DNA of 64,000 nucleotides from Mugil cephalus (taxonomy: Eukaryota; Chordata; Actinopteri; Mugiliformes; Mugilidae), in NCBI RefSeq assembly GCF_022458985.1, contig NC_061781.1, forward strand, positions 24,098,001 through 24,162,000, given 5' to 3'. The position numbers were made by a program, and so were the translations under genes. The notes under the pieces were generated by a model. It did not search any database, had not been told where the DNA came from, and was given only the letters and a program-made list of their open reading frames with translations. Positions 2,173-21,726 of the stretch are shown here, one piece after another (position 1 is the first letter of the stretch; each line of letters begins with the position of its first letter).

Positions 2173-2179
2173 TACAGTG
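2173..2179. mobile_element. First bases of a Tc1-like transposon, cut off by the retrovirus
   Basis: TA followed by CAGTG. Joined in the mind to GTGTGAAAAAGTG at 19865 onward, this gives the usual start of a Tc1-like terminal repeat at a TA target. The retrovirus therefore entered about five bases inside the transposon end. Confidence 0.75.
2176..2179. repeat. Target-site duplication AGTG, left copy
   Basis: AGTG directly before the TG of the LTR; the same four bases follow the other LTR at 19861-19864. Four-base duplications are made by several retroviral integrases, including foamy viruses. Confidence 0.85.
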
Positions 2180-3739
2180 TGTTAGATCCCGGAACAGGTA
2201 TAACAGCTTCTCCGTTTACTATAGGGTTATGGCTTCACGTCTGCGGAGTATTACTCCAACCGAATTCAATGATAGCACTACTCAAGCTGTAGGCGGGGTA
2301 ACTCGCCTGGCTTCTAACCACCCTTAGTCCTGACGTCTGCCCCGCTTCCTCACTTCCCCCGGAACCACCAGTCAGGGAGGCGTCCCGCAGCTGGGTCCGA
2401 AGTTGAGTCCCGTCAGTTGTGGTGGCTTACCCCTAATGGATCTGTGCACTTGGTACGTGCCAGGTTATAATTTAAAGGCTAGGCTGGAAGCCCTAGGGAC
2501 ATAGAAATAGTTTTAAGTGGAAACGACTAGTGTGACCAATAAGAGCAAGGTGTCGGAGCTACCATTATGATTGCCTATAGTTTTACTGTCTTGAGTACCA
2601 GCAAAAAGGGAGAAATAATCGTCAGCAAAGATTTTTGACCTTTAGAGCCAGATTTTATTTGAAGGTTCAGCAATAGCAGTTTGCAACAGCTCAATTAATT
2701 CGATCAAGAATCAGACATTGGTTAACATAAGATATGAATACAATTTAAACCTAAATCATGTAATACCTAATCAGAAATAAACTCTCTAAAGATTCTGTTC
2801 TAAAAATCACTTAATCAAACAAAGAATTACTCATGATCCAAGCAGGGGTAGTAGGGGTAATATAAAAATGTCCAAAACTGTCCCATAATTCCTTTTTAAA
2901 GTAGAACAGGCGTCGAGTGAGCCGCACGGCCGATGCGACCACACCCAACCCTAGTTCCTCTTACTGCCGCGGAGGGAGTTAGTAGAATAGGGAAGTCCTG
3001 ATGAACGATGATTCTGTCCTTTGGTAAATCCCTTAAATCTTTCTCAAATGTATTCCAATTCGGTCTCCTTGACTCCGTACAAAGTCCAAGAAGTAGTAGA
3101 AATCCAAAGTGTGAAAGATAATCCAACTCTATCTGCTAGGCAGGGGGAATCCAGACCAAACTCTTAAAAGCCAAAATAGTACTGCGAGGGAGTTGGCTCA
3201 GTCCGCATGCAGCACAGTCTGTGTCCGAGGTGAAGTTCCCGTAGTATATTTCTGAGTTACATCTTTTATACTCTCTAAATCGAGACACATCCTATTTCCC
3301 ACACATCACTATGACTAACCATTTCCCCCCCCTTACTACTTCTATCCAATAAGGGTGTTACCTCCCTGACTCATTAATTAATATTAGGACATTAGTTCTT
3401 TTTCTGTACTTTTCCACTAACCATGCGTTTGGACATGTCCTGACTTGTTCTTAGGCCACAAGGTTTCAGTTCCCCTTTTTATCCCCACTGCTGGCTCTCT
3501 ACATCCTGTTTATCATATTCTGCTCATGATTTCACAACACTTAGTTACACTGATCCAATTAGTATTCATTTTACATCCTGTGTATATTAATTACTTTTAC
3601 TGAAAATCAACATGTTTACTCAAAATCATTTTCAAATCATTGTATTATCTCTACTCATGCTGTTAATTCAAGTTCCGATCATACATTTAGTACCATGTCC
3701 TTAAGCTGTTGGTTGGCTGAGATCTCAACTCACTTGACA
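2180..3739 (-). repeat. 3' LTR of the retrovirus
   Basis: 1560 bp, reading TG...CA and nearly identical to 18303-19860. On the minus strand it holds a TATA-like box (TATAAAAG, 3263-3270) and an AATAAA signal (2654-2659). If these are the promoter and polyadenylation signals, U3 is about 0.5 kb, R about 0.6 kb and U5 about 0.46 kb. That partition is inference. Confidence 0.93.
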
Positions 3740-3749
3740 CCCCCTTCTT
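3740..3749 (-). other. Polypurine tract
   Basis: On the minus strand AAGAAGGGGG lies directly before the TGTCAAG that opens the 3' LTR. This is the expected position and composition for the plus-strand DNA primer of a retrovirus. Confidence 0.8.
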
Positions 3750-3776
3750 GAGATCGTAAGCTACCGGGTGATGATT

Positions 3777-4625
3777 TTACAGCTCAGGATCTTCCATCTC
3801 ATCCAAGGAATCATCAGATAATAATTCCAACACGTCGGGTACATACTCCTCACGCTGGGTTTCCATTCCCTCGTGTTGGCCTTCGGGTGGCGGTGCAAGT
3901 GTGGCCTCCTTTGGCCACTCAGCCAGGGGTAGTTGCTCCAACAGCTCCGCGAAAGGATGCAGATCCACCAGTGGCTCCTCAGGCGATGTCACCGGGGTGG
4001 AGGGAAGTCGGGTCAACTGCCTTTCCACCGCTTCAGCCAATCCTTCCCACTTGTTGTCTTCGTCCTCACTCACTTCTTCTATTCCATTAGAAGCCGTGGC
4101 ACACTGTAACACTTCCTCCAGCATGTCGCTGCTGTCTCCTCTGACAATTCCAGCGAGGGTTGTCTGGGTTCCGATGTCGCGATGTTCCTTCTCGTTTTCT
4201 GTTGACTCTTGCGCCAGAGGAGACGCTGGTTCCCCATAGACAGAGGGCGCTGCCTGTCGCGCTCCCGCGATGAGGATTCTTCCGTCCAAGGTGTGAGTGG
4301 TGCGGAGACGCGATCTGTCACGAAACTCCCAGACCCTGGTGTAGGTTGGTGCATAAATCCCTTCCTCAATCAGTCGAGGCACCCAAGTTACCCCCTTACC
4401 CCAGTAGGAACTCCAGATGATCCTTGCATGCTCTTCAAGCTCCATCACCATATCCACAGGTACTTGTAGGTTGACGAACCGATCGGCCCTTTGGAGGACG
4501 CCATGGACTGCATACGGGTGAGGATCCACCATGTAGCACTTGGAACATTGCATCCTCGTTCCCAGATTCCACAAACAGCCTACTTCTTTCAGGGTGGTCT
4601 CACACCCGCTGCAGACGGCGCCCCC
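3777..4625 (-). CDS. Retroviral accessory frame E: Cys-rich, acidic-tailed, transactivator-like
   Basis: An open frame directly before the 3' LTR, the place of the foamy-virus transactivator gene. The frame is open from 4625, just after an AG that could be a splice acceptor; the first in-frame ATG is at 4553, and a TTG lies at 4574. Two CxxC pairs (CSGC about 4600, CSKC about 4540) suggest zinc binding, and only the second lies after the ATG, so entry by splicing is plausible, as foamy and other complex retroviruses do. The C-terminal third is rich in E, D and P, ending VLELLSDDSLDEMEDPEL, like an acidic activation tail. Function as a transcriptional activator is inferred from position and composition; I recognise no named domain. 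It shares a short RLIEE-centred block with frame A. Confidence 0.7.
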   Translation of the reverse strand, partial: GGAVCSGCETTLKEVGCLWNLGTRMQCSKCYMVDPHPYAVHGVLQRADRFVNLQVPVDMVMELEEHARIIWSSYWGKGVTWVPRLIEEGIYAPTYTRVWEFRDRSRLRTTHTLDGRILIAGARQAAPSVYGEPASPLAQESTENEKEHRDIGTQTTLAGIVRGDSSDMLEEVLQCATASNGIEEVSEDEDNKWEGLAEAVERQLTRLPSTPVTSPEEPLVDLHPFAELLEQLPLAEWPKEATLAPPPEGQHEGMETQREEYVPDVLELLSDDSLDEMEDPEL

Positions 4626-4741
4626 CTATAATTAGAACACAGAGTTTTAATTCATACTTGATTATTCTTATTTCTCTTTTTTCCTGATTTTTCTATTTTT
4701 CTTTTTCTTGCAAGCGGAGCCACTTCTTCTTTTCTCAGACT

Positions 4742-5488
4742 TCAGGCCAGTGTTCCTTCTTCCTGGACCCTGTCTTCGAACGTGTCCAGCCATTTCGTCC
4801 TCCGCTCTGGAGGTGGGGTCCTCCCAATCATCGAGGCTCTCACTCGGGGATAGAAGATGGGGTACAGCATGAGCCAGCCAGCCATAGAGACCGATGCCTC
4901 AGCTCCTTCCCAATAGATGATCATCAGGGTCACCCAGCCTAGGACCCATAAAACTCCGATAGCGACCTGGTCAAGTTGGCACCAGCCTGGTCTTCCGTGC
5001 TTGATCATGGTCAGGGTGAGTAGGCAGAGTAGGAAGAAGGTCATCGTTACTCCCTCCAGCATGAATCCAATCCGCCAAGCACCCTCAACGAAGTCTGCCG
5101 CCACATCAAGCGCCAACCACGTTAGTAGCGCCACTGCCTTGATTACTCCCTTCCTGGTGGTGTCGATGGTGGTGCGCCCCAGCAGATGGATCAGGAACCA
5201 GGACAAGGTGATTCGTACCCTTCCCTGGACCACGATCTCGATCAGGGCTTTAATAAGGCCGATGAGTAGTGCTATGATCCGCAGGGGTTGTTCCTTGGAC
5301 CATACTCCAGTACAGCAAAACACCAACCATATGCACTCGAACGCCCAGAAATCCACCTTGGTAAAGTTGATCTCTGGTTCCTTGATCTCAGAGCTATTCT
5401 GGGTGTAAGTTAGACTTGTACTTACTTCCATGACCAATGCTGATGAAGTTATTGGAGACCCGGTACTTGCGTTGCTGGCGTTGGACAT
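4742..5488 (-). CDS. Retroviral accessory frame D: multi-pass membrane protein
   Basis: 248 aa starting MSNASNAST, with possible N-glycosylation sites in a polar head of about 40 residues. Then come about six hydrophobic segments (for example CIWLVFCCTGVW, VALLTWLALDVAADF, MTFFLLCLLTLTMI, VAIGVLWVLGWVTLMIIYW, AGWLMLYPIFYP) and a charged tail. It is clearly a sister of frame C just upstream in the virus: both share (I/C)IW(L/F)(V/I)FCCTG(V/L)W, an SWF...LLGR...(I/V)DT(T/S)R(K/R)G block and an (A/V)LDVA helix. A tandem gene duplication inside the virus is the simplest reading. Probably a membrane protein of infected cells; its job is unknown, and I know of no family it clearly joins. Confidence 0.8.
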   Translation of the reverse strand: MSNASNASTGSPITSSALVMEVSTSLTYTQNSSEIKEPEINFTKVDFWAFECIWLVFCCTGVWSKEQPLRIIALLIGLIKALIEIVVQGRVRITLSWFLIHLLGRTTIDTTRKGVIKAVALLTWLALDVAADFVEGAWRIGFMLEGVTMTFFLLCLLTLTMIKHGRPGWCQLDQVAIGVLWVLGWVTLMIIYWEGAEASVSMAGWLMLYPIFYPRVRASMIGRTPPPERRTKWLDTFEDRVQEEGTLA

Positions 5489-5728
5489 TCTTTTCTTCGT
5501 GTAGCTCCCCCGTTGTTCAACCTTGAACTGACCACTTCCTCTTTGCTCCGCTGGTTATAATGCAAGTCCGCCACACCCTTGGTAGGCGGGTCTCTCCTCC
5601 CACCGTTTTCTCTTTTTGTCCATACATGGTAACATAAAAGTTGATTGGATGATTATGAGTGCGAAAGCTTTAGCTGGCAGAATGCCTTGGACTGCCCTTG
5701 TCACGAGGTTAGCTTCGCCAAAATGGCG

Positions 5729-6421
5729 TCAAAGAGGGACCTCCTCGTAAATGTGCTCCATCCCCCGTGTCCAGCGTCGGGTATCGGCCGCTCTGGCTCT
5801 TTCCTCCCCCGGTGGAGTACTGACCGGCTCCTGTCGAGCAGGTTGCGGGAACAGATGTCCATACAGCACGAACCAGACGATCAGGGGTAAGTTGGAAATG
5901 AACCCCAACAGGCACATAATGCTTAGAATCCCCCAACCAAATCCCCACAAGCAGAGACGCAGCAATTTTAGAGCCCACATCTGAGCCTGGTTACTCTTCA
6001 GCTTACTGACTTGTGAATACATGTAGCTCAGTAGGCCCACCACCACCAGTCCTTCCAGGCCCAAATTCACCCAATAAGCGACTCTGGACCACAGTGAAGC
6101 TACATCCAGCACCAGCCAGATGATCAAGATGATCATTCTCATAATTCCTCGTCTGGATGTGTCTACCTTGAGCCGTCCCAGGAGGAATGCCACGAACCAG
6201 GATGTGGTGTAGGTGGCCTCGCCCCTCCATACGTTCACAATCAGTACCCGCACAATTCCTTCGATCAGGCAGAGGATCCTGAACCCCTGGTGTCCGATCC
6301 ATAGCCCCGTACAGCAAAAGATGAACCATATGATTTCCAATGTGACGAACTCTGCTACATCCCCTTCAAATCTTTTAATCCACAGAGGTTGGGTTGTGGG
6401 GGATTCAGTTCCATTTTCCAT
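5729..6421 (-). CDS. Retroviral accessory frame C: multi-pass membrane protein, sister of D
   Basis: 230 aa starting MENGTESP. A short polar N-terminus is followed by about six hydrophobic stretches (LEIIWFIFCCTGLWI, MIILIIWLVLDVASLW, LGLEGLVVVGLLSYMY, LCLWGFGWGILSIMCLLGFI, LPLIVWFVLYGHLF) and an Arg/Glu-rich tail ending HIYEEVPL. The core lines up with frame D through FCCTG, SWF...LLGR, VDTSRRG and LVLDVA, although the two have diverged strongly. It lies between env and frame D in the same direction, so both are probably made from spliced messages. Candidate roles (ion channel, receptor or immune interference, budding) are guesses. Confidence 0.8.
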   Translation of the reverse strand: MENGTESPTTQPLWIKRFEGDVAEFVTLEIIWFIFCCTGLWIGHQGFRILCLIEGIVRVLIVNVWRGEATYTTSWFVAFLLGRLKVDTSRRGIMRMIILIIWLVLDVASLWSRVAYWVNLGLEGLVVVGLLSYMYSQVSKLKSNQAQMWALKLLRLCLWGFGWGILSIMCLLGFISNLPLIVWFVLYGHLFPQPARQEPVSTPPGEERARAADTRRWTRGMEHIYEEVPL

Positions 6422-6517
6422 GTTGATGATATTTTCCGAGGGTTTTTATTCTGTCCCTTGCTTACCTCACTCAACGAACAAGTCCAGGTATGGGGCTGTG
6501 TTGACAAGCGTCACCCC

Positions 6518-8857
6518 TTACTTACGAGGTGATCCTTCCTCGCGTAGGAGGAGTTCCAACTCCTCCTCATCCTTGGGCTTAGTCTTCGTTCTCCGCCCCC
6601 TTCTGCAGAGTCCCTTGACTCCAGATCTGATCAATCCTCCTAAAAGTGGCGCGAGTAGCACCACTCCCACGCCAATCAACGCATATGGCAGAATCTTTTT
6701 GATGATCCCCCAAAGTTCTGATCCCAGAATTAGCGCTCCATCTTCAATCTTTCCCAAGATCTCCCTGGGTACTTCTACAGCACTTTCCAACACGGTTTTC
6801 CCGTACAGTTCCACTACGGTGCAATCGTGTCCTTCACATTGCAGCCAATGTTCCTGTGGCATTTCACAGGTTCCGTTGTTGTACATCTTGTTCGGCCCGA
6901 CCCATTCGAATCCTTCGATCTCCTTCCCTTCACACAGACTTTTCCGAAACGCATGTTCTTCAAGCCTGGTGAGTTCTGCTTTATTCACCACGGGTACCGG
7001 TTTCCCGGCGATGCGCCGCCTCTTGGCCATTGGTCCTAACAAGGCTTTCACACATCCTTTACCCCATTGTTTAGCCTCATACGACCGCTGCCATCCAAAA
7101 CTGCTCTGCTTCTGTCTGGTCGAGTTACCAAACAGATGTACGTTATTTTTGACCCATGTGGCTCCTTGCTGATAAGTGTCATAGGCTCCATCATACCACC
7201 AGGCACATACCTGGTCCCAACCATGGAGCGTGCTGCAAGGTCGTCGGGCAAGCTCTACGGTGCAAGAGGTGTTTGCTCGATTACATACCATTTTCCATGG
7301 CCTCGGGGTCAAAGTCACGCTTGGTCTGATCCCAGTCCAACCGTACCATTCATTGAGTCCTTCCCCTGTAGAGTAGACGGTAGCCACATATTGATACTTG
7401 ATCCAATAGTTCGAAGTCTGTGACAGGCATGGCAGAACCCAGGCCCTGGTTTCGTCCTTTTGCAGACCCCACCACGGTCGAGTCTTGTCTGGCCTGTCCC
7501 ACCACAATGGCCACTGCTCCAACGCCCCCTTCATGGTATTATGGCCCCGTATCCGCGAACAGTTGTATGTCCAGTACCCTACCACCCAGGATCCCACTTG
7601 TGTGATATCGCACCTAGGGGATGCCCAGTCGGACGATCTGGTTCCCTCACCCATGGAGTAGTCCTTGCCGTTCAGGTCCTGTACCATCTTCTCCACAACG
7701 CATTTATCGATTTTCTCAAAATCCCCTAAAGGTACAGACCACAGATCCTCAGGTGTAGGGATTTGTTGGACATACATCTCCGCTTGCTCAGGGCCCGCCA
7801 GATGAGTAGGCCGCGTTGCAATATCAGTGGTCGCTCTCAGGTGGGCCACTGGTTTCCTCCAAACCCATGGCAAGCTGTGGTTCAGCCAGTCATCAATCCT
7901 GACTGTTCCAGCCTCGGGCGGGTCACCTCTCTCAGTCGTCCCTCTCTCATTCTGATGACTAAGGACCAGATAGTGTTGGTTTTTGCAGACAATAGGCCCC
8001 AGATTCCAGTAGCAAGGGTCAAGTTTAAAAGCTTTCTCTCGCAGACAATCTTCCAAGTCCTCGCGACTATATGATGACGAGACCCGTGGAGGCCGTCTCT
8101 CGTCCAGACCCAGTCCCCCAGATGTCTTCACCACCGGCGTAGAGTTGTTAGCTACCCCTGTAGTATTGTTACCAGTAGTGGGATGGTGTCTTGTTGTGAT
8201 GTTGACATTGCTTTGTCCGGGCTGGTCTGGGTCTGGTTGATCCTGCATATCACAGGTTAGATTTAGCTCTCCCCAAAAACCCTCTGGCTTAGGGATCAAC
8301 ACATGACATCGCTGCTGGAACTGATGAGCGGGTGAAATGACCTCTTCAACCCAATAGGTTATATTCCTTCTTTTGACACAGGCCTGGGTGTAGTACCAAT
8401 ATGGATTTTCTCCGTCCACTTGTATCCAATTAACTCGTACCTCGCGAGTCTCTTGTTGCTGAGGGAGGACGCCATCTAGCAGCAGTGTTTCTCCTTGGAG
8501 CTCCACTGCTTCGATCACTCCCCCTCCTTCGACTCTATGGGAGTCGAAAAACTGCATAATGGCTGAAAGATTAAAATCCTCAAAACCATATAGACCTTCT
8601 TTAGTGCAGTTAATAGAAGAATCCACTACACAGGGAAGAGAAAAATTCCTCAGCGTGATCACTTCCCTCTTAATTTCCCAACAGGTCTGATTATACACCT
8701 GTGTTGAGGTAAAGCTAATCCTCACGTGTTCATTTTCCCACAGGCCATTACCATGGCAATACAAAAAAGTTAAAATAGAAAAAAGACCTATAAACCCGAT
8801 ACTAAACTTAAAAATAATCCACTTCGTAGGACAGGATAGAGTTCTTCCAGCCATCAT
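6518..8857 (-). CDS. env: Retroviral env
   Basis: An open frame of 779 codons from the ATG at 8857 (a second ATG follows at once; the frame is open a little further). A hydrophobic leader (about residues 13-31) lies near the N-terminus, followed by a long Cys/Trp-rich ectodomain with many NxT/NxS sites. An RRR site about 170 residues from the end could be cut by a furin-like protease. Near the C-terminus is a membrane anchor, LPYALIGVGVVLLAPLLGG, and a basic then acidic cytoplasmic tail. The leader and the LIGVGV anchor recall foamy-virus Env. I see no CX6CC or immunosuppressive motif typical of gamma-type TM subunits. Position after pol and the accessory frames supports Env. Confidence 0.82.
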   Translation of the reverse strand: MMAGRTLSCPTKWIIFKFSIGFIGLFSILTFLYCHGNGLWENEHVRISFTSTQVYNQTCWEIKREVITLRNFSLPCVVDSSINCTKEGLYGFEDFNLSAIMQFFDSHRVEGGGVIEAVELQGETLLLDGVLPQQQETREVRVNWIQVDGENPYWYYTQACVKRRNITYWVEEVISPAHQFQQRCHVLIPKPEGFWGELNLTCDMQDQPDPDQPGQSNVNITTRHHPTTGNNTTGVANNSTPVVKTSGGLGLDERRPPRVSSSYSREDLEDCLREKAFKLDPCYWNLGPIVCKNQHYLVLSHQNERGTTERGDPPEAGTVRIDDWLNHSLPWVWRKPVAHLRATTDIATRPTHLAGPEQAEMYVQQIPTPEDLWSVPLGDFEKIDKCVVEKMVQDLNGKDYSMGEGTRSSDWASPRCDITQVGSWVVGYWTYNCSRIRGHNTMKGALEQWPLWWDRPDKTRPWWGLQKDETRAWVLPCLSQTSNYWIKYQYVATVYSTGEGLNEWYGWTGIRPSVTLTPRPWKMVCNRANTSCTVELARRPCSTLHGWDQVCAWWYDGAYDTYQQGATWVKNNVHLFGNSTRQKQSSFGWQRSYEAKQWGKGCVKALLGPMAKRRRIAGKPVPVVNKAELTRLEEHAFRKSLCEGKEIEGFEWVGPNKMYNNGTCEMPQEHWLQCEGHDCTVVELYGKTVLESAVEVPREILGKIEDGALILGSELWGIIKKILPYALIGVGVVLLAPLLGGLIRSGVKGLCRRGRRTKTKPKDEEELELLLREEGSPRK

Positions 8858-8925
8858 GATCTTGTTCCTCACTTCTGGAGCCCCAGATAGTGAGTGTGTC
8901 CATGTCCCATGCTTCTGTCACTTAA

Positions 8926-9990
8926 CTACAACCAGTAGCTCCTCCTCTCCTCGCCAGGTGCCAATGGAATCACTGTCACCTTAGGACGAGGTGATCGCAG
9001 GTCACCCTTTAGATTGCGCCATACTCGTCCCCTCATGAGCCGGGTCATTGCTGGATAGGGATGGGCGCCGCTACAGTTATGCACCTCGAAGTTGTCCCGA
9101 ATATACGGATCCAATCCCCGCCACATCCAGCGATAACGGGTGATGATGACGTTCTTGGTAGGCCTAAGCGGGCCAATACAGCTGGTCACCGCATTTTTCC
9201 CCATTTCTTCGTAATCTGGCCTGTGATCAGGGGGAATGTCATTCCTTACCATTGCGAGTTCTGCGCATAAGGGCTCACCACGAGGATCCACAAGCTCCAC
9301 CAGCTTCGCCCATCGATCAGACCTGTTACACCCCGAATCGAGAAGCCCATCTTTTCGTACCGATGGCATCCTGTACATAGTATACCGTTGGCTGGGGAAA
9401 TCCTGCTCCTGCACTCCCAGTCGTTCAGTCTGGTTTTCGATAACAATCCTTTCAGGATCATTAATCCTCAGATGGAGACTCCTGTAGGTCTCTCGACTGG
9501 TAGTCCAAATAAGTGAGCTCCCGAGCCACATGTCCATATACATTCCCAACCATGGCTGGCAGTGGTTTACTCCCCACCTTAGCTTGATCAGTTCTTTTCC
9601 AATCTGGAGGTATACTGTGTTAAGTATCCAGGGCATATGTTTAGGACACTCAGGTACTGGCTGGTTCACCCATTCCGTTCTACAGTACACATATTTAAGG
9701 GAGAGAAACTGCAGCTGCGCACCCCCATGTACTCTCTTCCCCATGCATCCCTTTTCAGGTTTAGTGAGATCGGCCGATCTGGTCAGCTCTATATTACTAC
9801 AACAATAGGCCTCAGATCCACAAAAATTATAATCGTACAAGTAATCTCGAACAGGTCTTCTCAAAAATATTTTTACATTTGGAAGTTTTATATAGGGAAC
9901 AGGGGTACTTCTCCTTTGCTTCTTGTCCCCTCTTCTCTTTGCATGAAGTTGCACTTGAGCCCCAGCTACTGCTGGGCCTTCCAACTCCAT
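8926..9990 (-). CDS. Retroviral accessory frame B: orphan basic protein
   Basis: 354 aa from an ATG at 9990 that overlaps the last 25 bases of frame A in another frame. The N-terminus is basic (KRRGDKKQRR) and the C-terminus again Arg-rich. The middle has about ten cysteines (NFCGSEAYCCSN, CRTEW, PECPKHMPW) and many Trp and Tyr, but no clear membrane segment or signal peptide. It lies between frame A and env in the same direction. I recognise no family. A nucleic-acid-binding or regulatory role would fit the basic ends, but nothing shows it directly. Confidence 0.7.
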   Translation of the reverse strand: MELEGPAVAGAQVQLHAKRRGDKKQRRSTPVPYIKLPNVKIFLRRPVRDYLYDYNFCGSEAYCCSNIELTRSADLTKPEKGCMGKRVHGGAQLQFLSLKYVYCRTEWVNQPVPECPKHMPWILNTVYLQIGKELIKLRWGVNHCQPWLGMYMDMWLGSSLIWTTSRETYRSLHLRINDPERIVIENQTERLGVQEQDFPSQRYTMYRMPSVRKDGLLDSGCNRSDRWAKLVELVDPRGEPLCAELAMVRNDIPPDHRPDYEEMGKNAVTSCIGPLRPTKNVIITRYRWMWRGLDPYIRDNFEVHNCSGAHPYPAMTRLMRGRVWRNLKGDLRSPRPKVTVIPLAPGEERRSYWL

Positions 9991-11369: not shown

Positions 11370-11388
11370 GATTTTAGCTCCTAGTCAC

Positions 11389-14300
11389 CTAGTCTGGAAC
11401 TGGTTTCAGCTGCCCTATTCCTTGGATTCCCGACTTCTTCAACCGAACTGTATTTCGATCTATAATCTCCGTCACTATGTCAGTTTTGTCGTATTTTGCT
11501 TTCACTGCTGCTCCAGCTGGGTGGCTCTGAGCTTTAATCCACACACGCTGTCCAACATGTAATGACATCTTGCCTTCCGGGGGTGGCTTCTTATCCTCAG
11601 GGCTCCTCCCAACCTCTTGTGACGTAAAGGGGCGCTGATTCAGCTCCTCCGCCGGTGACGGTCTTCCCTCTCGATGTCTGTCATTCAGGGTTTTGACCAG
11701 TGATAAGATCTGAGTGCTCCACTCTCTTCCATTGGCGTTCTTCCCAATCCAGCTTTTTACAAGCCCAATGGTTCGTTCCACTACCCCGTTGGCTTGTGGT
11801 GTGTATGGCGGTGAATACACTCTAATCACTCCATTGTCCTGACACCACTTATCCACTTTTGCGTTTCGAAAATGAGTTCCATTGTCTGTTCTGAGCTCCT
11901 TTGGTATTCCAAGACCGCAACAGACCTGGTCCAACATACTGACAACACTAGTGCCATTAGCCTGGCGAGCAGGTCTCACCGCAACGTACCCTGACATAGA
12001 ATCCACTAACACCAGCAGGTATTTTTCTCCTCTCATACCTGTTATCCCCAAGGGTCCGGCTACATCCATGCATACAGACCCCCAAGGTACGGTGCTCTTG
12101 ATGGTCAGTCCTCCTGCTCGCTGTCCTCTCCGACCCGCGTTGTACCGACCACACTCAACACAGTCCTTGAGAACACGCCGAACCTCCTTCTCTGGAATCC
12201 ACAGCTGCTGTTTTTCCAGCTCCCTGCGCGTTGGGACAGCTCCAGCGTGACCGAGTGCCTCGTGCACCGCCCGCGTCACCCCCTCCACACAGTCTTTTGG
12301 GACGATCCTACCTTTAGGCGAACTATCCCATTTCTCGATCCCGACAAAGACAATTTTCCTCATCTGGACGAAACGATCCACTTCTTCGTTTCCTCGCCAG
12401 TGAGCTCCTTCTTTTGTATGTGCTTTTTGATGCACCACTTCAAGGTCCAGGTTCAGTCGTAACTCTGCGATCTTTTTCCATAAGTCCTCGTGGGCCACCT
12501 TCTTCCCTTTCGCAGTTTCATATCCATTCTCTTCCCAAATGGTTAGGTCCTCATTCAGGGCCTGGGCACAATAATAACTGTCTGTTATAATCCTTGCTCG
12601 CTTAATCTTTCTCTTCTCCAGCTCGAGCAGTCCCTCCAACACTGCTGTTACTTCCCCAGCTTGTGCGCTACCGGCTGCCTTCCCTCGCTGACGGTACTCC
12701 TCCTTCTCCTTCAGCTTGAGAATGAACCCCCAGTATGCCGCGTCATCGGGACCCTTCCTCGAGCCGTCTGTGAACAAGGTCCATTCATGATCCTCCCGTG
12801 GCGGGTTCTCGGCCGCTGCAGCTTTAGGTGCTCCCGGTTGTAAGGGTCCGATCTCGAGATCTGGGTCTAACAGGACGTCTTCCCATCGACCCCACCTGGC
12901 ATTAGTTGCCTTTGTACTCTCGACAGTTGCTTTCCTGAGGAACCGGTGTACCTGGCTCTGGGTGATGACTCGAACCTCCTGCCCTTGGGATAAATCCTTC
13001 AAGGAACTCCAGTATCTTGCCAGCACCGCCAGTTCTTTCTCTTCTAGTGGATACTTTTTTTCCACTGAGGATAGGGTGTAGCTCCACAAAGTCACCAGTC
13101 CACCACCCTCATTGCTCACCTTCACAGTAGCACCGTCGTCCTCACAACTTATTTCTGCAACCAGCCTTGCTGTTGGACTCCTGGGTTCGAGCCTCAGGGC
13201 CCCTTGGATTGCCTTCCTCAGGATCTCCAAGTTGCTCTGATCAGCTGCAGTCCAGACCCATTCCACTGCCTCATTTGGCTTCTTAAGCTTGGCGTACAAA
13301 GGTTTCGCATACTTCTGGTATCCCGGTACGTGATCCCTCACGTAGTTGCACAAGCCCAACACTTTCTGTAGTTCATTTACTGATGACGGGGGTTCTATCC
13401 GTTCGATCTTCTTTTTATATTCTTCAGATAATCCCAAATCGTCAGACACCTGGAATCCCAAATAATCCACCTTTCTTCGCCCAAACTGACACTTTTTCAA
13501 GTTGAGTTTGAGCCCTGCTGCTGTGAGTCTCTCCACAATACTTTGTAGTCTATCCAGGTGCTGTTCTTCTGTATCATCTGCGATAAACACATCATCTATA
13601 TAGATAGTAGCATCCAGCCCATCAAGTACATCCATAACTGCTGATTGAAATATGTTAGGGGAGTTCTTGTATCCCTGAGGGAGCCTTTCCCACACGTAGG
13701 ATCTTCCTTTGTGAGTAAAGGCCGTTTTCCCTTGTGAACCTCGGGCTAGTCGAAGAGAGAAAAATCCATTGGCCAAGTCTATACAGGACTTGTAGGGTTT
13801 CAGCTTTAGGGTCTTTAGGGTTCCCTGGGGGTTGATGAGACTTGCTCTGTTGGCGACGGTTCTTCTGTTCAAAGCTTTAAAGTTGATTACCGGTCGCCAA
13901 CCCCCTCCTGAGGATTCTGGTTTCTTCACCGCCTGTATTGGGCTATTTGTGATGGGGTTTGGCTCGTGGCGAATCACCCCCAGCATCAGCAGCTCCCTGA
14001 CGATGAGATCCATCTCATCCACTGCCCCCGGGTTCAGAGGATACTGCCGTACAGGTGGATGTACTCCTCCTTCTATGGTATGGACATACCTGGTTCCCAG
14101 ATCGCCACAGTCATTCTTGAATCTTGCCACATTCGCTTTGGAGATGATCTCCCTCAATCTCTCCTTCCCTTCTGGAGAAAGATCACTCTCCTGTATTTTC
14201 TGCTCTGTCACTTCTGGGACGTTCACCGACTTGTACCAGACTCTGGTGGTCGAGTCTTCGACCGTTGGCAACCTCACCAGCCGGGCTTGTAAAACTCTCA

Positions 14301-14601
14301 GCCGCTCCTCCACTTTCTTACGGTTGCACGGTTTTTGATGTAATCTTTCCAAGTCTGCTATGGTTACCATGTCATAAGCTCCCAGGACCCACACTATTCC
14401 TTTCCAGATGCCATAGGGTACCTCTGTGATTGAGGCATCCGCTAGCTGCACCTTCAACCTCCCCCTAGGACTCAGAGCCCTCCTTGTCATAGATACCTCA
14501 GCCCCCGAGTCCACCAAATAGGGGACACCGTCCACCTGGGTGTAGATGTTGTCTTTGACACGGTAAGCATGTTCCAGGGTGACTCGAGCTGTCGCGTCCA
14601 T
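11389..14601 (-). CDS. pol: Retroviral pol (protease, reverse transcriptase, RNase H, integrase)
   Basis: 1070 aa. In order: protease with LVDSGAE near residue 30; RT with LPQGYKNSP and the catalytic YIDD; a connection region ending ARWGRWEDVLLDP; RNase H opening with TLFTDGS; integrase with an HHCC zinc module (HEALGHAG ... CVECGRYN) and a D,D-E core (CMDVAGPLG, RTDNGTHF, VVERT). The start ATG overlaps the gag stop as TAATG, in another frame, so Pol has its own start, unlike the Gag-Pol fusions of most retroviruses; foamy viruses also make Pol separately, from a spliced message. The RT fingers-palm and the LGLCNYVRDHVPGY segment recall foamy and ERV-L enzymes. All domains are open. Confidence 0.95.
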   Translation of the reverse strand: MDATARVTLEHAYRVKDNIYTQVDGVPYLVDSGAEVSMTRRALSPRGRLKVQLADASITEVPYGIWKGIVWVLGAYDMVTIADLERLHQKPCNRKKVEERLRVLQARLVRLPTVEDSTTRVWYKSVNVPEVTEQKIQESDLSPEGKERLREIISKANVARFKNDCGDLGTRYVHTIEGGVHPPVRQYPLNPGAVDEMDLIVRELLMLGVIRHEPNPITNSPIQAVKKPESSGGGWRPVINFKALNRRTVANRASLINPQGTLKTLKLKPYKSCIDLANGFFSLRLARGSQGKTAFTHKGRSYVWERLPQGYKNSPNIFQSAVMDVLDGLDATIYIDDVFIADDTEEQHLDRLQSIVERLTAAGLKLNLKKCQFGRRKVDYLGFQVSDDLGLSEEYKKKIERIEPPSSVNELQKVLGLCNYVRDHVPGYQKYAKPLYAKLKKPNEAVEWVWTAADQSNLEILRKAIQGALRLEPRSPTARLVAEISCEDDGATVKVSNEGGGLVTLWSYTLSSVEKKYPLEEKELAVLARYWSSLKDLSQGQEVRVITQSQVHRFLRKATVESTKATNARWGRWEDVLLDPDLEIGPLQPGAPKAAAAENPPREDHEWTLFTDGSRKGPDDAAYWGFILKLKEKEEYRQRGKAAGSAQAGEVTAVLEGLLELEKRKIKRARIITDSYYCAQALNEDLTIWEENGYETAKGKKVAHEDLWKKIAELRLNLDLEVVHQKAHTKEGAHWRGNEEVDRFVQMRKIVFVGIEKWDSSPKGRIVPKDCVEGVTRAVHEALGHAGAVPTRRELEKQQLWIPEKEVRRVLKDCVECGRYNAGRRGQRAGGLTIKSTVPWGSVCMDVAGPLGITGMRGEKYLLVLVDSMSGYVAVRPARQANGTSVVSMLDQVCCGLGIPKELRTDNGTHFRNAKVDKWCQDNGVIRVYSPPYTPQANGVVERTIGLVKSWIGKNANGREWSTQILSLVKTLNDRHREGRPSPAEELNQRPFTSQEVGRSPEDKKPPPEGKMSLHVGQRVWIKAQSHPAGAAVKAKYDKTDIVTEIIDRNTVRLKKSGIQGIGQLKPVPD

Positions 14602-17600
14602 TATTCCTTCTTCCCCCCGTCAGCCACCTGCTGGCGGGCTAAACGGAGTGCATCTCTCTGTTCTGGTGTTAATTTTTTATATTCCTCTGGTGCCAGATAT
14701 CCAGTCTTCTTGTTGCTGGGCTCTCCCCCGGATTGTCGTTGGTCGAATGGCCTGTTGCTAGGAGCGTTAGCTGGGGGACCTCGTGCAGGTGGCCGTTGAT
14801 CCACTCTCCTTGGTTGGTTCTGCTGGTTTGGCGGGGGCCTCGGGGTTGCCACCTTCTGTTGAGTACGTTGACTCCCCTCGACCCGCCTCTCTTCTTCGAA
14901 CTTCCTCTTACGGTCCCATTTCTTCACCGTTTCCATTATCTGGTCCGGTGTACTATTCACCGCATCCAAGGTAACAAAATCCAGCTCACCTTTCAGGCCC
15001 TTCACCAACCTCCTAAGCACCTTAACACTCCGGCTTGCAGGCACCGTTCGGCTCAAAATGTACCACACCTGGGTCAGAGTCTGCCCCTGATCCAGCTGTC
15101 CTCGTGCCTTCTCTATTTGCGCATCCTCATCGTCGCCATCCTCTAGCACCAGTCTCTTGTAATGCTCCTCTGCGGTTTCATCCTGATCCATAGGCTGTCC
15201 AGTTACATGGGACAGCCAGGTCAGCCGTGCCTGGTTGTCATTAGTGCTCGATTTCACCATCGGCCAGTTCTTCCTCAGGTAATCCTGCAGGTTCTGAGTG
15301 GAAGCTTTATCTTGCACTAGTATTTTTATCTTTTTAAATTCCTCAAAGCTGGAACTTCCCCCTGTTGTTGCCGATGTCCCAGCTCGGCTGACGCTCACCG
15401 CTACGTCCTGGGTGGGCCGACGCCTTTGTAACTCAGCACCGACCCGAGCCGAAGCTCCCAGATCCTCATCGTCACTGGATGATATCTCCTGCAAGCGGCG
15501 GTTTTCGGTCTCTTTCGCATACTTGAGGGCTGTTTTCTTCAGTCGTCTCAGCATAACATCATGTGTAATGGCCAGGAACGCGGTTTTGAAGTTAGCGGTC
15601 AGATTCCCACAGCTCCTTAGTGTGGGGAAGGTGGGGGCCATCAGAAAATTGGCCCATTCCTTCACCTGAGCTTTTACTGGCAGCACCACTTCTTCCTCCA
15701 ACCGCTCCCCCCATTCCTCTGGGACCCCATGGTCCTGCTGGCCAGCTTCAGGCATATATGTTTTCCGCCCATCCCGCGTTTCTATATATCCAAAGGAAAT
15801 ATCACGCGCCAGCCTTTCCGAGGTACTGTAGATGGTGTATACTGGGGTCTTTTTCTTTGTTCCTTTTCTCTGGCCAACTCGCAGTTCCCTGGCCCCCGTG
15901 ATGTCTTCCTGCCTTACAGACGCCAGGGTGTCCGCCTCTTCCTCCTCCTCGGACTCTTCGTCACCGCTGCTGCTGCTGATTTCCTGATGGCTGCGGGAAC
16001 GATTAAGCGGTGGTGAAGATTCTCGCATCGCGCTGTGCCTGGGAGCAGTCACGTTCCCTGGGGTTGGTGTGTTAAATGCTCCCGCGTCTAGTTGCTCCTG
16101 GTAGGTTACAGCTGCTACGCCAGGCGTCCTCTCGGTCTGCATACCCTGGTAATCCCTCATCGGCTCCAGCCTGATCCGACTAGGGGCTCCTCCAGACCCA
16201 GGGGTCCCAGCCCCTAGCTCTCGTCTGGGTGGACTTCTGGTCGGGGATAGCTGACGTGGAGGAGCCGTTGGTTCCCCCTCGGCATCCCTGCCCGGGGTGG
16301 AGGTGCTCCTGAGTCGCGAAGTTCTCAGCGGTTCTCCCGGCGACTCCCCTCTCACACGTGCCCAGGACTTCTCGTCCTCCGGCCGATTTAAGGTCCTGGT
16401 CAGCCTCTCCCTTCTTTCTTTCTGCTGCTTCAAGGAGGTGACGAGGACCATTTCCCCTATGCCGGACCAAGCCGACGCTTCTGTTGCATGTATGCGGCCA
16501 GCTTTCACCATGGCCTTCTCAGCCACCAACCATGGCAAGTTTCCCGATCTTATTCCATCAACACACATCGTTACTCGGGTATATCCAGCGTTACTGGCTG
16601 CCCGCAGCCCCATTTCCAGGGCTTCAACCAGCTCCTTCTCGTACTCCTCAGGGGGGATCACTTCCTCATATGCCCTCACGGGAATATGGATTATGGCAAA
16701 ATAGCGCGATTCACCCCCGCTGACAGTCAGGACTGGGCCGCTATCCTCTTCACCCTTTAGTTCTTTAATTCTGCCCTTCAATTCCCTAACGAACCCTTCA
16801 CCAGCATTCCTGCGCAGCTCTTTCTTGAACTTACTATTCCAAGGGTTATACCGGGAGTCTGTTAGCACGATTAGTCCGTGTCCCGCAAAATCCCATGGTT
16901 CCCCATGGTGTTGGTACATTATCGTCTGAGTTTGGCCCTTCCATCTCAGAGCCCCGGCAGGTACAGGATCCAAGAGAGGGAGCCAGTCTCCTTTGTTCTC
17001 CTCATCCGTTAGCTCCCTAGAGGGTTTCTCCCGGGAGGGCCAACTCTGTCTCCGATCCCGCAAATAAGTTCGCACCACCTGCGGGGTCACAGAGACGTGC
17101 TCGAGCTTCGCAGGCGGGGCCGCTAGTCCAAACGTGGTTCCCTTCTGGTCCCATTCCAGAGAGGAATCCGGCTCCGGGTGGTCTGGCTCAGAATCATGGC
17201 TAGAGTCAGCATCGCTCTCCTTCTGGCTCCCTTCTATACTCTCTGGGGGATCTTTCAGGAATCGGTCTGCCACGGCGCCGAACTTTTGCAGTATGACCCG
17301 ATAAGGCTCATGCTCCTTGTATTGCTTAGCCGCTACAGTCCTTGCCCCTATCGTTACTGCACCCACCCCAGACACTTTCCCTAGCATCTTGATGATCGGG
17401 TCGTATCTCTCATGGGGGCTTATCCACGCTGTCACGGGCTGGGGCTCTTCTTCCAGCTTTTTCCCTGGCCATATTACTCCCACAGCCCAGTGCAGCCATG
17501 CTTTTATTGTATCCTTTGTTGCCCCCGCTCCAGGGGATGGCACCACATGCACCCCTATCCGTGCAAGCACGTTGGGGGTTCGGAATGTTCCTCCTTCTTT

Positions 17601-17903
17601 GCAGACCCGGTCCACCTCCTTCCCCACGTCCTCATCTGAGGTGTCAGGAGAGAAGGGGACCGCAAGGCACCTCGCCGACACGTGTTGCTTGACCGTGGGG
17701 TCCCAGGTATCCCATCCCCTTCCCCAGGGAATGACCTGGATTACCGTCCCGGTCTGCGCCTTGTCACCATATTCCTTTCTTCGGACCGTGGTCTCCGGGG
17801 CCTCTCCTGAGGCCTCGTTCCCCTTATCCTCACTTGGCGGGGACACTGGAGGCGACTCCGAGCTGAGCTGCTCCACTGAGATTTCTGTTCCCCCCTCGGC
17901 CAT
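14601..17903 (-). CDS. gag: Retroviral gag with a macro-like insert
   Basis: 1100 aa, very long for a Gag. Residues about 1-330 are of unknown fold. Residues about 335-495 read like a macro domain: LIVLTDSRYNPWNSKF, then GPVLTVSGGESRYFAIIHIPV, then a helix LVEALEMGLRAASNAG and VTMCVDGIRSGNLP, matching the order of strands and ligand loops in that fold. A Ser/Pro/Arg and acidic linker (500-680) follows, then alpha-helical, capsid-like sequence (about 740-1000) and an Arg/Pro/Gln/Asn tail without CCHC knuckles. The last codons are TAATG, shared with pol. Position after the primer site and before pol identifies Gag even though the capsid is too diverged to align by eye. Confidence 0.85.
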   Translation of the reverse strand: MAEGGTEISVEQLSSESPPVSPPSEDKGNEASGEAPETTVRRKEYGDKAQTGTVIQVIPWGRGWDTWDPTVKQHVSARCLAVPFSPDTSDEDVGKEVDRVCKEGGTFRTPNVLARIGVHVVPSPGAGATKDTIKAWLHWAVGVIWPGKKLEEEPQPVTAWISPHERYDPIIKMLGKVSGVGAVTIGARTVAAKQYKEHEPYRVILQKFGAVADRFLKDPPESIEGSQKESDADSSHDSEPDHPEPDSSLEWDQKGTTFGLAAPPAKLEHVSVTPQVVRTYLRDRRQSWPSREKPSRELTDEENKGDWLPLLDPVPAGALRWKGQTQTIMYQHHGEPWDFAGHGLIVLTDSRYNPWNSKFKKELRRNAGEGFVRELKGRIKELKGEEDSGPVLTVSGGESRYFAIIHIPVRAYEEVIPPEEYEKELVEALEMGLRAASNAGYTRVTMCVDGIRSGNLPWLVAEKAMVKAGRIHATEASAWSGIGEMVLVTSLKQQKERRERLTRTLNRPEDEKSWARVRGESPGEPLRTSRLRSTSTPGRDAEGEPTAPPRQLSPTRSPPRRELGAGTPGSGGAPSRIRLEPMRDYQGMQTERTPGVAAVTYQEQLDAGAFNTPTPGNVTAPRHSAMRESSPPLNRSRSHQEISSSSGDEESEEEEEADTLASVRQEDITGARELRVGQRKGTKKKTPVYTIYSTSERLARDISFGYIETRDGRKTYMPEAGQQDHGVPEEWGERLEEEVVLPVKAQVKEWANFLMAPTFPTLRSCGNLTANFKTAFLAITHDVMLRRLKKTALKYAKETENRRLQEISSSDDEDLGASARVGAELQRRRPTQDVAVSVSRAGTSATTGGSSSFEEFKKIKILVQDKASTQNLQDYLRKNWPMVKSSTNDNQARLTWLSHVTGQPMDQDETAEEHYKRLVLEDGDDEDAQIEKARGQLDQGQTLTQVWYILSRTVPASRSVKVLRRLVKGLKGELDFVTLDAVNSTPDQIMETVKKWDRKRKFEEERRVEGSQRTQQKVATPRPPPNQQNQPRRVDQRPPARGPPANAPSNRPFDQRQSGGEPSNKKTGYLAPEEYKKLTPEQRDALRLARQQVADGGKKE
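15780..16905 (-). other. Middle of gag: end of the macro-like domain and charged linker
   Basis: The macro-like domain maps to about 16420-16900; the rest is the disordered linker with SSSSGDEESEEEEE and many SP/RS dipeptides. The macro part keeps an N-x-x-N pair where canonical macro domains have NxxN, and a GIRSGNLP loop like the GxxGxP loop, but lacks the GGG(V)A glycine stretch, so any ADP-ribose binding is uncertain. Confidence 0.45.
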
Positions 17904-18282
17904 CTCTGGACCTGGCTGGCGTTCTTCTTAACTTTGTCTTTGTCTTTGTCGTCTCGAGCCGCCTTTCTCCAAAGCCTCTCGTAGCGCGTCGAGTCAGGGA
18001 TGGAGTCGGGCGGTGATGCCTCCCTGCAGAGTCGTCCGGATCCCCGTCGGTTGGGGTCTCTCCAGCGATGTCTGCTGCAACCTTTCCTGTCTGCGTCTCG
18101 CCGCTCAGGACAGGTTGAGAGCGTTGGTTCTCTCGCTACCTCGGCTCCAAACAGCTCACGTAGTCTGTGAGGCTCCGCGCTGCTCTTCTATTTACCTCGG
18201 GTCGTCTCACACGAACGGTAACCGCTCCGGGCTACCAGGGTTCTTTCTCTTTAGGCGTGGCTAAAGTCGCTCGCTCTGCCAC
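17904..18282 (-). other. Retroviral 5' leader between primer site and gag
   Basis: About 380 bases, G+C-rich, without a long open frame. The packaging signal, and perhaps a splice donor, would be expected here or in R; I cannot pick either out with confidence. Confidence 0.6.
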
Positions 18283-18300
18283 GCCCCACGTTGGGCGCCA
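18283..18300 (-). other. Primer binding site, tRNA-Lys1,2 type
   Basis: The minus strand reads TGGCGCCCAACGTGGGGC two bases inside the 5' LTR. This is the complement of the 3' end of tRNA-Lys1,2, the primer used by foamy viruses, visna virus and Mason-Pfizer monkey virus. Confidence 0.9.
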
Positions 18301-18302
18301 CG

Positions 18303-19860
18303 TGTTAGATCCCGGAACAGGTATAACAGCTTCTCCGTTTACTATAGGGTTATGGCTTCACGTCTGCGGAGTATTACTCCAACCGAATTCAATGATAGCA
18401 CTACTCAAGCTGTAGGCGGGGTAACTCGCCTGGCTTCTAACCACCCTTAGTCCTGACGTCTGCCCCGCTTCCTCACTTCCCCCGGAACCACCAGTCAGGG
18501 AGGCGTCCCGCAGCTGGGTCCGAAGTTGAGTCCCGTCAGTTGTGGTGGCTTACCCCTAATGGATCTGTGCACTTGGTACGTGCCAGGTTATAATTTAAAG
18601 GCTAGGCTGGAAGCCCTAGGGACATAGAAATAGTTTTAAGTGGAAACGACTAGTGTGACCAATAAGAGCAAGGTGTCGGAGCTACCATTATGATTGCCTA
18701 TAGTTTTACTGTCTTGAGTACCAGCAAAAAGGGAGAAATAATCGTCAGCAAAGATTTTTGACCTTTAGAGCCAGATTTTATTTGAAGGTTCAGCAATAGC
18801 AGTTTGCAACAGCTCAATTAATTCGATCAAGAATCAGACATTGGTTAACATAAGATATGAATACAATTTAAACCTAAATCATGTAATACCTAATCAGAAA
18901 TAAACTCTCTAAAGATTCTGTTCTAAAAATCACTTAATCAAACAAAGAATTACTCATGATCCAAGCAGGGGTAGTAGGGGTAATATAAAAATGTCCAAAA
19001 CTGTCCCATAATTCCTTTTTAAAGTAGAACAGGCGTCGAGTGAGCCGCACGGCCGATGCGACCACACCCAACCCTAGTTCCTCTTACTGCCGCGGAGGGA
19101 GTTAGTAGAATAGGGAAGTCCTGATGAACGATGATTCTGTCCTTTGGAAATCCCTTAAATCTTTCTCAAATGTATTCCAATTCGGTCTCCTTGACTCCGT
19201 ACAAAGTCCAAGAAGTAGTAGAAATCCAAAGTGTGAAAGATAATCCAACTCTATCTGCTAGGCAGGGGGAATCCAGACCAAACTCTTAAAAGCCAAAATA
19301 GTACTGCGAGGGAGTTGGCTCAGTCCGCATGCAGCACAGTCTGTGTCCGAGGTGAAGTTCCCGTAGTATATTTCTGAGTTACATCTTTTATACTCTCTAA
19401 ATCGAGACACATCCTATTTCCCACACATCACTATGACTAACCATTTCCCCCCCCTTACTACTTCTATCCAATAAGGGTGTTACCTCCCTGACTCATTAAT
19501 TAATATTAGGACATTAGTTCTTTTTCTGTACTTTTCCACTAACCATGCGTTTGGACATGTCCTGACTTGTTCTTAGGCCACAAGGTTTCAGTTCCCTTTT
19601 TATCCCCACTGCTGGCTCTCTACATCCTGTTTATCATATTCTGCTCATGATTTCACAACACTTAGTTACACTGATCCAATTAGTATTCATTTTACATCCT
19701 GTGTATATTAATTACTTTTACTGAAAATCAACATGTTTACTCAAAATCATTTTCAAATCATTGTATTATCTCTACTCATGCTGTTAATTCAAGTTCCGAT
19801 CATACATTTAGTACCATGTCCTTAAGCTGTTGGTTGGCTGAGATCTCAACTCACTTGACA
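18303..19860 (-). repeat. 5' LTR of the retrovirus
   Basis: 1558 bp, TG...CA, nearly identical to the 3' LTR. A TATA-like TATAAAAG lies at 19385-19392 and AATAAA at 18777-18782, both on the minus strand. As 5' LTR it should drive proviral transcription toward lower coordinates. Confidence 0.93.
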
Positions 19861-19864
19861 AGTG
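19861..19864. repeat. Target-site duplication AGTG, right copy
   Basis: AGTG directly after the 5' LTR, matching 2176-2179. Confidence 0.85.
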
Positions 19865-21257: not shown

Positions 21258-21726
21258 TTACGCAATGCACAATATCGATAACCGTATGTGTTCTGTTAGT
21301 TGACATTGTTGCTGTGGTTGTAGAGTATGTTTTTTGTCCTTGATGTCAGTAAATGCAGCAAGAGACTGACGTGATGCAACAGTAGTTTGTGTTCAGTTGT
21401 CAATTACCTTGTAGAAAATCCTCCATAGCTTCAACATTGGATACTGTGAGCTAGACAGGTTACGTAATGGACCACAAGAGTCAATGAGTTAGAACAATGA
21501 TGTAATGGGCCTCCTGAGTTGAGATCCTTGGAGGGTCCAGCAATCTGATAAAAGCTTTCCACAGCCTCAAACAATTCAAAATTTGCAAAGTGAATTTCAA
21601 GATCAGGTATCTGTGAATGAATGAATACTTAGAGCAGGTTGGTTTTATAGTAATTTGAATGATTATTTATGTTAATTTGTTACACATTCTGTTTTATCAT
21701 TGAACATTAAGATTTTACAAATACTG
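21258..21726. other. OR2 upstream region
   Basis: Noncoding DNA between the Tc1 end and OR2. It holds the promoter-like pair listed next and otherwise nothing I can name. The frame opening at TTG 21700 is an artefact of alternative starts; the true ATG is 21727. Confidence 0.6.
21503..21553 (+). promoter_or_regulatory. OR2 candidate promoter (TAATGGG ... GATAAAA)
   Basis: TAATGGG at 21503 and CAATCTGATAAAA ending at 21553, about 175 bases before the ATG. The second part matches the CAGTCTGATAAAA before OR6-OR9. TAAT cores are homeodomain sites, known in OR promoters of vertebrates; GATAAAA could serve as a TATA-like box. Confidence 0.4.

What the first reader, a model, noticed from the sequence alone, without database searches (positions are those of the whole stretch)
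2180..19860. A 17.7-kb, very young, foamy-like endogenous retrovirus with eight open frames
The sequence shows near-identical 1.56-kb LTRs, TSD, primer site, polypurine tract and eight same-strand frames. Foamy-type traits (Lys1,2 primer, no CCHC in Gag, separate Pol start, Env leader, 3' regulator-like frame) place it near Spumaretrovirinae, but the length and five extra frames exceed typical foamy viruses. If real, it is a large complex retrovirus that invaded the fish germline recently.
Basis: partly seen in the sequence, partly recalled or inferred. Interest (0 to 1): 0.9.

Follow-up and report, generated by a model that had tools for sequence, protein, structure and literature searches.

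The report
Young giant foamy-like fish retrovirus
A very recently inserted, apparently intact 17.7-kb retrovirus in a fish genome belongs to a known group of oversized foamy-like fish retroviruses, and its Gag protein seems to carry a macro domain, a fold better known from ADP-ribose-binding proteins.

Summary
Confirmed almost to the base. A provirus lies on the minus strand at 2180-19860: LTRs without a single substitution between them, a 4-bp TSD, a Lys1,2-type primer site, a polypurine tract and eight large frames. Pol is foamy-type and falls in a fully supported fish clade. Size, primer, gene order and a pair of acc1 paralogues match AciFLERV, a ray-finned-fish foamy-like ERV published in 2017 (proposed 'Gigantospumavirus'). 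It is a new member of a known kind.

What I add: (1) five independent sites in this genome have LTR pairs with 0-2 substitutions; the four copies compared have constrained genes (dN/dS 0.02-0.25) and recombinant histories, so the source is a recently replicating, recombining virus population rather than passive copying. (2) Gag residues 300-511 probably form a macro domain (Pfam E 3.4e-4, one bit under cut-off; a low-confidence model matches macro domains; profile tests against host macro domains failed); the ADP-ribose motifs look altered. (3) The acc1 duplication is old. (4) acc1a and acc1b look like multi-pass membrane proteins. (5) One apparently old copy is probably an assembly artefact.

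The parts
2176..2179 (.). target-site duplication CACT (minus-strand reading), 3' side
2180..3739 (-). 3' LTR, 1560 nt, TGTC...AACA
3740..3750 (-). polypurine tract next to the 3' LTR
   Evidence: same sequence beside the 3' LTR of the other young copies
3777..4574 (-). ORF8, acc2 position, 265 codons from a TTG (first ATG at codon 8); acidic C-terminus, no known domain
4742..5488 (-). ORF7, acc1b-like, 248 aa, four hydrophobic segments; paralogue of ORF6
5729..6421 (-). ORF6, acc1a-like, 230 aa, several hydrophobic segments
6518..8872 (-). ORF5, env: N-terminal hydrophobic leader (18-39), C-terminal hydrophobic anchor (720-752), 14 N-glycosylation motifs, KRRR at 617; first ATG at codon 6
   Evidence: named by position and make-up, no sequence match to a known Env
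8926..9990 (-). ORF4, acc4-like, 354 aa, 11 cysteines
9966..11369 (-). ORF3, acc3-like, 467 aa, paired-cysteine N-terminal part, two PSAP motifs
11389..14601 (-). ORF2, pol: protease motif (DSGA), RT, RNase H, integrase, 1070 aa; its ATG overlaps the gag stop by one base
14601..17903 (-). ORF1, gag, 1100 aa, no CCHC box
   Evidence: named by position
16371..17006 (-). Gag residues 300-511, probable macro domain
   Evidence: weak or negative
18283..18300 (-). primer-binding site, tRNA-Lys1,2 type
   Evidence: tRNA identity recalled
18303..19860 (-). 5' LTR, 1558 nt; TATAAAAG at LTR position 469, AATAAA at 1079
19861..19864 (.). target-site duplication CACT, 5' side

Best explanation
It is a very young provirus of the ray-finned-fish foamy-like group (FLERV, 'Gigantospumavirus' proposal). 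Shown: LTR-TSD-PBS-PPT anatomy, a foamy-type Pol, eight open frames, near-identical LTR pairs at five insertion sites, purifying selection on gag, acc3, env and acc1a pieces, and recombinant relations among copies. Inferred: RNA made from the LTR is reverse transcribed from a tRNA-Lys primer and integrated with a 4-bp staggered cut; Gag and Pol are translated separately; enveloped particles carry the virus between cells; and the copies reached the germline by repeated recent infection from a circulating, recombining population, not by passive copying of one old element. A macro domain inside Gag may bind ADP-ribose-like ligands or RNA, or be structural only; its ligand motifs look altered.
For: Pol against solved structures (best 60 of 326 matches shown): monkey foamy enzymes 291.7-223.6 bits, then a caulimovirus-type 'Enzymatic polyprotein' 133, Ty3 113, p80 RT entries 111-109 (MLV/XMRV type, recalled), other retroviral RTs 105 and below, HIV-1 RT entries about 68 and below. 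Integrase: PFV entries from 64 bits, the first entry named for another virus (HTLV-2) about 41. Fish Pol proteins 59-76% identical (16 of 58 hits). Tree: window in a 17-row fish clade, 100/100; foamy plus the foamy-like rows, 24 in all, 100/100. Gene plan equals AciFLERV. LTR pairs 0, 0, 2, 0 (2 in the second assembly copy of that site) and 0 substitutions; 4-bp TSDs CACT, AATG, AGTC, GGAG, CCGT. dN/dS 0.02-0.25 in 12 of 12 comparisons, which all share the window copy and in part rest on few changes. Shared-site splits: gag piece 5:0:0, acc3 0:0:20, env 4:3:4, acc1a 0:1:1, LTR 2:5:12.
Against: No exogenous virus, particle or transcript was seen. Two of the three other young copies carry a one-base indel in env and in acc3, and stops occur in many pol, gag and env matches, so many copies are dead. 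Purifying selection with recombination could also arise in an active germline family. Outside Pol only the Gag piece gave a notable family match, to the macro family and below the curated cut-off.
Confidence: 0.85

Rival explanations
1. The family spreads inside the germline as an active endogenous element: a few functional copies retrotranspose, and recombination between co-packaged copies makes the mosaic. No outside virus is needed.
For: Many copies in the genome: 40 LTR places scored of 118 candidates, 63 pol matches. Some copies are broken though their LTR pairs are young.
Against: env pieces are constrained as well (dN/dS 0.20-0.25 in 3 of 3), which copying inside a cell does not need. 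The four copies differ by 2.5-3.2% in LTR while LTR pairs differ by 0-0.13%.
Confidence: 0.3
2. The LTR identity or the copy number is an assembly artefact.
For: Two copies are suspect. C1:53.38 Mb and C1:53.55 Mb share one insertion site. C23:13.138-13.156 Mb has the same host flanks as the C23:13.10-Mb copy, but its LTRs are 7-10% mismatched to that copy with many gaps, as an unpolished false duplicate would be.
Against: The window copy has its own TSD and flanks, eight open frames and LTRs that differ by two indels. Five sites have different flanks and TSDs.
Confidence: 0.04
3. It belongs to another retroviral group (epsilon, ERV-L, lokiretrovirus) with convergent foamy traits.
For: None of these could be put in the tree.
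Against: The best foamy RT scores more than twice any non-foamy solved RT; integrase also foamy-best; gene plan as AciFLERV.
Confidence: 0.04
4. The Gag stretch is an unrelated alpha/beta domain, not a macro domain.
For: Model confidence is low (mean pLDDT 47). A profile of four host macro domains ranks the piece only 50th among about 5000 shuffles, and the reverse search ranks 2 of the 4 host domains 338th and 1157th and does not report the other 2. hhalign is insignificant. The curated Pfam cut-off is missed by one bit, after some twenty other pieces and whole proteins had been scanned. Sequence searches with the piece found no macro protein.
Confidence: 0.15

Closest known systems
AciFLERV of the Midas cichlid (Aiewsakun and Katzourakis 2017, PMC5512871)
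   Same: 17.4 kb, eight frames, tRNA-Lys primer, acc3 (465 aa) and acc4 (334 aa) between pol and env, two acc1 paralogues and acc2 after env, young LTR pairs (0.2-1.1%)
   Different: Here 17.7 kb and one intact-looking insertion rather than an inferred ancestral sequence; LTR pair without substitutions; macro domain not mentioned in the sections I read; sequences not compared directly
AliFLERV of the annual killifish (same paper)
   Same: 17.5 kb, tRNA-Lys primer, gag-pol-acc3-env-acc1-acc2
   Different: Six frames, single acc1, no acc4 frame
Simian and prototype foamy viruses (Spumaretrovirinae)
   Same: RT and integrase similarity, no CCHC in Gag and Pol with its own start (foamy traits recalled), tRNA-Lys primer (from PMC5512871)
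   Different: About 10 kb; five frames; no acc3 or acc4; Gag and Env gave no match here
Epsilon-like fish ERVs with macro-domain or CNPase frames (Basta et al. 2009, seen only as cited in PMC4977317)
   Same: A macro domain in a fish retrovirus
   Different: There described as additional frames in another retroviral group; here inside gag of a foamy-like element

Membership tests
Spumaretrovirinae / foamy-like | RT and integrase nearest to foamy viruses | tested here: met
   only Ty3-type outgroups in the tree
Spumaretrovirinae / foamy-like | No CCHC zinc knuckle in Gag | tested here: met
   pattern scan
Spumaretrovirinae / foamy-like | Pol not made as a Gag-Pol fusion (own start) | tested here: inconclusive
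   pol ATG overlaps the gag stop by one base; expression not observed
Spumaretrovirinae / foamy-like | tRNA-Lys primer site | tested here: met
   tRNA identity recalled. Not universal: NviFLERV uses tRNA-Asn
Spumaretrovirinae / foamy-like | Foamy-type Gag and Env folds | tested here: inconclusive
   no sequence match for Env or Gag; Env fold not predicted
Spumaretrovirinae / foamy-like | Internal promoter and transactivator (Tas) | not testable with these tools
   needs transcript or reporter data
Ray-finned-fish FLERV with acc3/acc4 ('Gigantospumavirus' proposal) | About 17 kb, pol-acc3-acc4-env-acc1-acc2 order | tested here: met
   by size, order and paralogy, not by alignment to AciFLERV
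Ray-finned-fish FLERV with acc3/acc4 ('Gigantospumavirus' proposal) | Pol inside the ray-finned FLERV clade | tested here: inconclusive
   17-row clade 100/100 whose named rows are all ray-finned fish; the published FLERV sequences were not in the tree
Macro domain (PF01661) | Score above the curated Pfam cut-off | tested here: not met
   21.0 bits against 22; I therefore call it probable and macro-like, not a filed member
Macro domain (PF01661) | Macro fold | tested here: inconclusive
   matches dominated by macro domains, model of low confidence
Macro domain (PF01661) | ADP-ribose motifs of the host domains (NAAN, GG, SSG) | tested here: not met
   by eye against host macro domains; role of the motifs recalled

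The most novel reading that the evidence does not exclude
A giant foamy-like retrovirus still circulates, or did until very recently, in living fish. It recombines as it spreads and repeatedly enters the germline, and its Gag precursor carries a built-in macro domain that meets the host's ADP-ribosylation (PARP) defence from inside the particle, a use of the fold not described for foamy-like retroviruses in the papers I could search.
Probability: 0.3. Interest if true: 0.8.

Novelty: new member of a known kind. Interest (0 to 1): 0.47.

Why it matters
The 2017 paper calls ray-finned-fish FLERVs the largest retroviruses documented, and it found no known domains in their accessory proteins. A young family with several open, selection-kept genes is good material for finding the exogenous virus and for testing those genes. 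A macro domain inside Gag would be a first functional clue to this Gag, as far as my searches show, and would link a retroviral structural protein to ADP-ribose biology.

Tried and rejected
Gag relatives: two database searches gave none, although 16 close fish Pol relatives exist. Pol in viral contigs: none. The Pfam scan of the whole Gag gave nothing even at E 10; only the cut-out domain scored. Env, acc3, acc4, acc1a, acc1b and acc2 gave no Pfam match whole or in pieces; a C-terminal Gag piece gave one weak match far under its cut-off (PARM, E 0.052). Solved-structure searches with the Gag piece or its alignment gave no macro hit. Profile tests with host macro domains were weak or negative. 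A reading of C23:13.138-13.156 Mb as an old copy (LTR pair 19.8% apart) was dropped after its host flanks proved to be those of the C23:13.10-Mb copy. The acc3 search of the genome did not complete. acc4 and acc2 were not searched in the genome, and acc4, acc1b, acc2, pol and most of gag were not tested for selection. An acc1 alignment was made for a second structure prediction, which was left unused for lack of calls.

Rows left out: the tree uses 38 of the 58 Pol hits plus one foamy row and the window row; the 20 left out are low-scoring hits. The selection and mosaic tests use three other young copies; the C1:53-Mb insertion, seen twice in the assembly, was left out. LTR pairs were picked by spacing from the 40 scored places, so further pairs may exist.

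Literature: searches for macro domain plus retroviral terms and for foamy-like or FLERV terms listed no report of a macro domain in a foamy-like Gag; the library holds open-licence papers only. Of PMC5512871 I read the outline, sections 5-8, 10 and the figure and table section; of PMC4977317 the passages; of PMC9040795 the abstract and outline; the others only as search listings.
Full report
On the minus strand of the window, 2180-19860 is a provirus of 17,681 nt. The two LTRs (1558 and 1560 nt) align over 1559 columns (one flanking base included) without a substitution and with two one-base gaps. They begin TGTC and end AACA, and CACT is repeated on both sides. A Lys1,2-type primer site stands two bases behind the 5' LTR and a polypurine tract directly before the 3' LTR. 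The fish rate quoted in PMC5512871 (1.46e-8 per site and year) gives one expected substitution per about 22,000 years for this pair, so zero means roughly under 66,000 years (my arithmetic, about 95%). The insertion lies between two open frames that match olfactory receptors.

The affiliation is foamy-like. Pol carries RT, RNase H and integrase above Pfam's curated cut-offs. Among solved structures, monkey foamy protease-RT enzymes score 291.7-223.6 bits; the next entries score 133 (a caulimovirus-type 'Enzymatic polyprotein'), 113 (Ty3), 111-109 (p80 RT entries, MLV/XMRV type by recall), others 105 and below, HIV-1 RT entries about 68 and below (best 60 of 326 shown). Integrase is nearest to PFV, 64 bits, against about 41 for the first entry named for another virus, HTLV-2 (three rows between are named only 'Integrase' and are PFV by recall). 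In the protein database 58 Pol relatives were found, 16 of them at 59-76% identity; those with organism names are from ray-finned fish. An RT tree of 40 rows puts the window in a 17-row fish clade with 100/100 support, and beside three rows from Zoarces viviparus and Anarrhichthys ocellatus with weaker support (93/84). The foamy enzyme plus the foamy-like rows, 24 in all, form a 100/100 group against the remaining, Ty3-like rows.

The gene plan is known. PMC5512871 describes AciFLERV, 17,409 nt, with eight frames: gag, pol, acc3 (465 aa), acc4 (334 aa), env, acc1a (253), acc1b (251), acc2 (234), and a tRNA-Lys primer. Here the frames after pol have 467, 354, 784, 230, 248 and 265 codons, and ORF6 and ORF7 are paralogues at 33% identity. 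The authors tentatively proposed the name Gigantospumavirus. I could not align to AciFLERV itself, so the filing rests on Pol, size, order and paralogy.

The paper calls the acc1 duplication very recent and lineage-specific in AciFLERV. Here the two paralogues are only 33% identical, and a search with acc1b gives, besides the acc1b match, a second and weaker match (27-38% identity) close by at 13 places by my count, decayed copies included; I take the second to be acc1a. The duplication is therefore old. Both proteins look multi-pass by hydrophobicity, which makes a Tas-like transcription role less likely for them; the acidic ORF8 is the better candidate for that (inference).

Copies in the host. 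An LTR piece matched 40 scored places of 118 candidates. Seven LTR pairs about 16-17 kb apart, the window's included, were examined. One pair (C1:53.38 Mb) repeats the flanks of another (C1:53.55 Mb), and one (C23:13.138-13.156 Mb) has the host flanks of the C23:13.10-Mb copy with 0 of 120 and 1 of 87 mismatches, while its LTRs are 7-10% off with many gaps. I read the last as an unpolished false duplicate in the assembly. That leaves five independent sites, with 0, 0, 2, 0 (2 in the second assembly copy) and 0 substitutions between LTRs and with TSDs CACT, AATG, AGTC, GGAG and CCGT, all 4 bp (the last bases of some ends were set by eye).

How it spreads. I compared the window copy with three other young copies in pieces. 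dN/dS was 0.05-0.10 for the Gag piece, 0.02-0.10 for acc3, 0.20-0.25 for env and 0.04-0.09 for acc1a: 12 of 12 comparisons well below 1, with no stop at an aligned codon. The 12 are not independent, as all involve the window copy, and several rest on one or two replacement changes. Two of the three others carry a one-base indel in env and in acc3, so those copies are broken there. The four copies differ by 2.5-3.2% in the LTR although each LTR pair is nearly identical, and shared sites support different pairings in different genes: 5:0:0 in the Gag piece, 0:0:20 in acc3, 4:3:4 in env, 0:1:1 in acc1a, 2:5:12 in the LTR. The simplest reading is a replicating, recombining virus population that entered the germline several times of late. 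An active germline family with recombination is the main rival; the constraint on env speaks against it.

Verdict: a real, young, apparently intact new member of a known kind, with a new domain lead and good evidence of recent repeated invasion.

Noticed in passing
window 34-792 (+) and 21700-22656 (+); other frames of about 300 aa to 63728: The provirus sits between two frames that match olfactory receptors (PF13853); many similar-sized frames follow, probably an olfactory-receptor cluster (only two frames tested).
   Followed up: partly
G000 C1:50673124-50697038 (not in the window): Tandem array of an env-derived fragment (env residues about 276-737) with a spacing of about 1.69 kb, roughly ten copies, the longer matches each with stops, next to pol pieces of a decayed provirus.
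   Followed up: no
G000 C23:13137700-13156500 (L019, L020): Error-rich second copy of one insertion with the same host flanks: looks like an unpolished false duplication in the assembly. The C7:8.29-8.31-Mb copy shows the same many-stops pattern and may be alike.
   Followed up: partly
G000 C1:53383126-53400800 and C1:53548100-53565900: Two copies share one insertion site and TSD: a segmental or false duplication.
   Followed up: partly
window 9966-11369 (-), ORF3: acc3 has two PSAP motifs (residues 215 and 221) and a paired-cysteine N-terminal part; PSAP is a late-domain type motif (recalled). Gag has one PTAP at 545.
   Followed up: no
window 18303-19860 (-): With TATAAAAG at LTR position 469 and AATAAA at 1079, the R region would be about 600 nt, long for a retrovirus (inference).
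   Followed up: no
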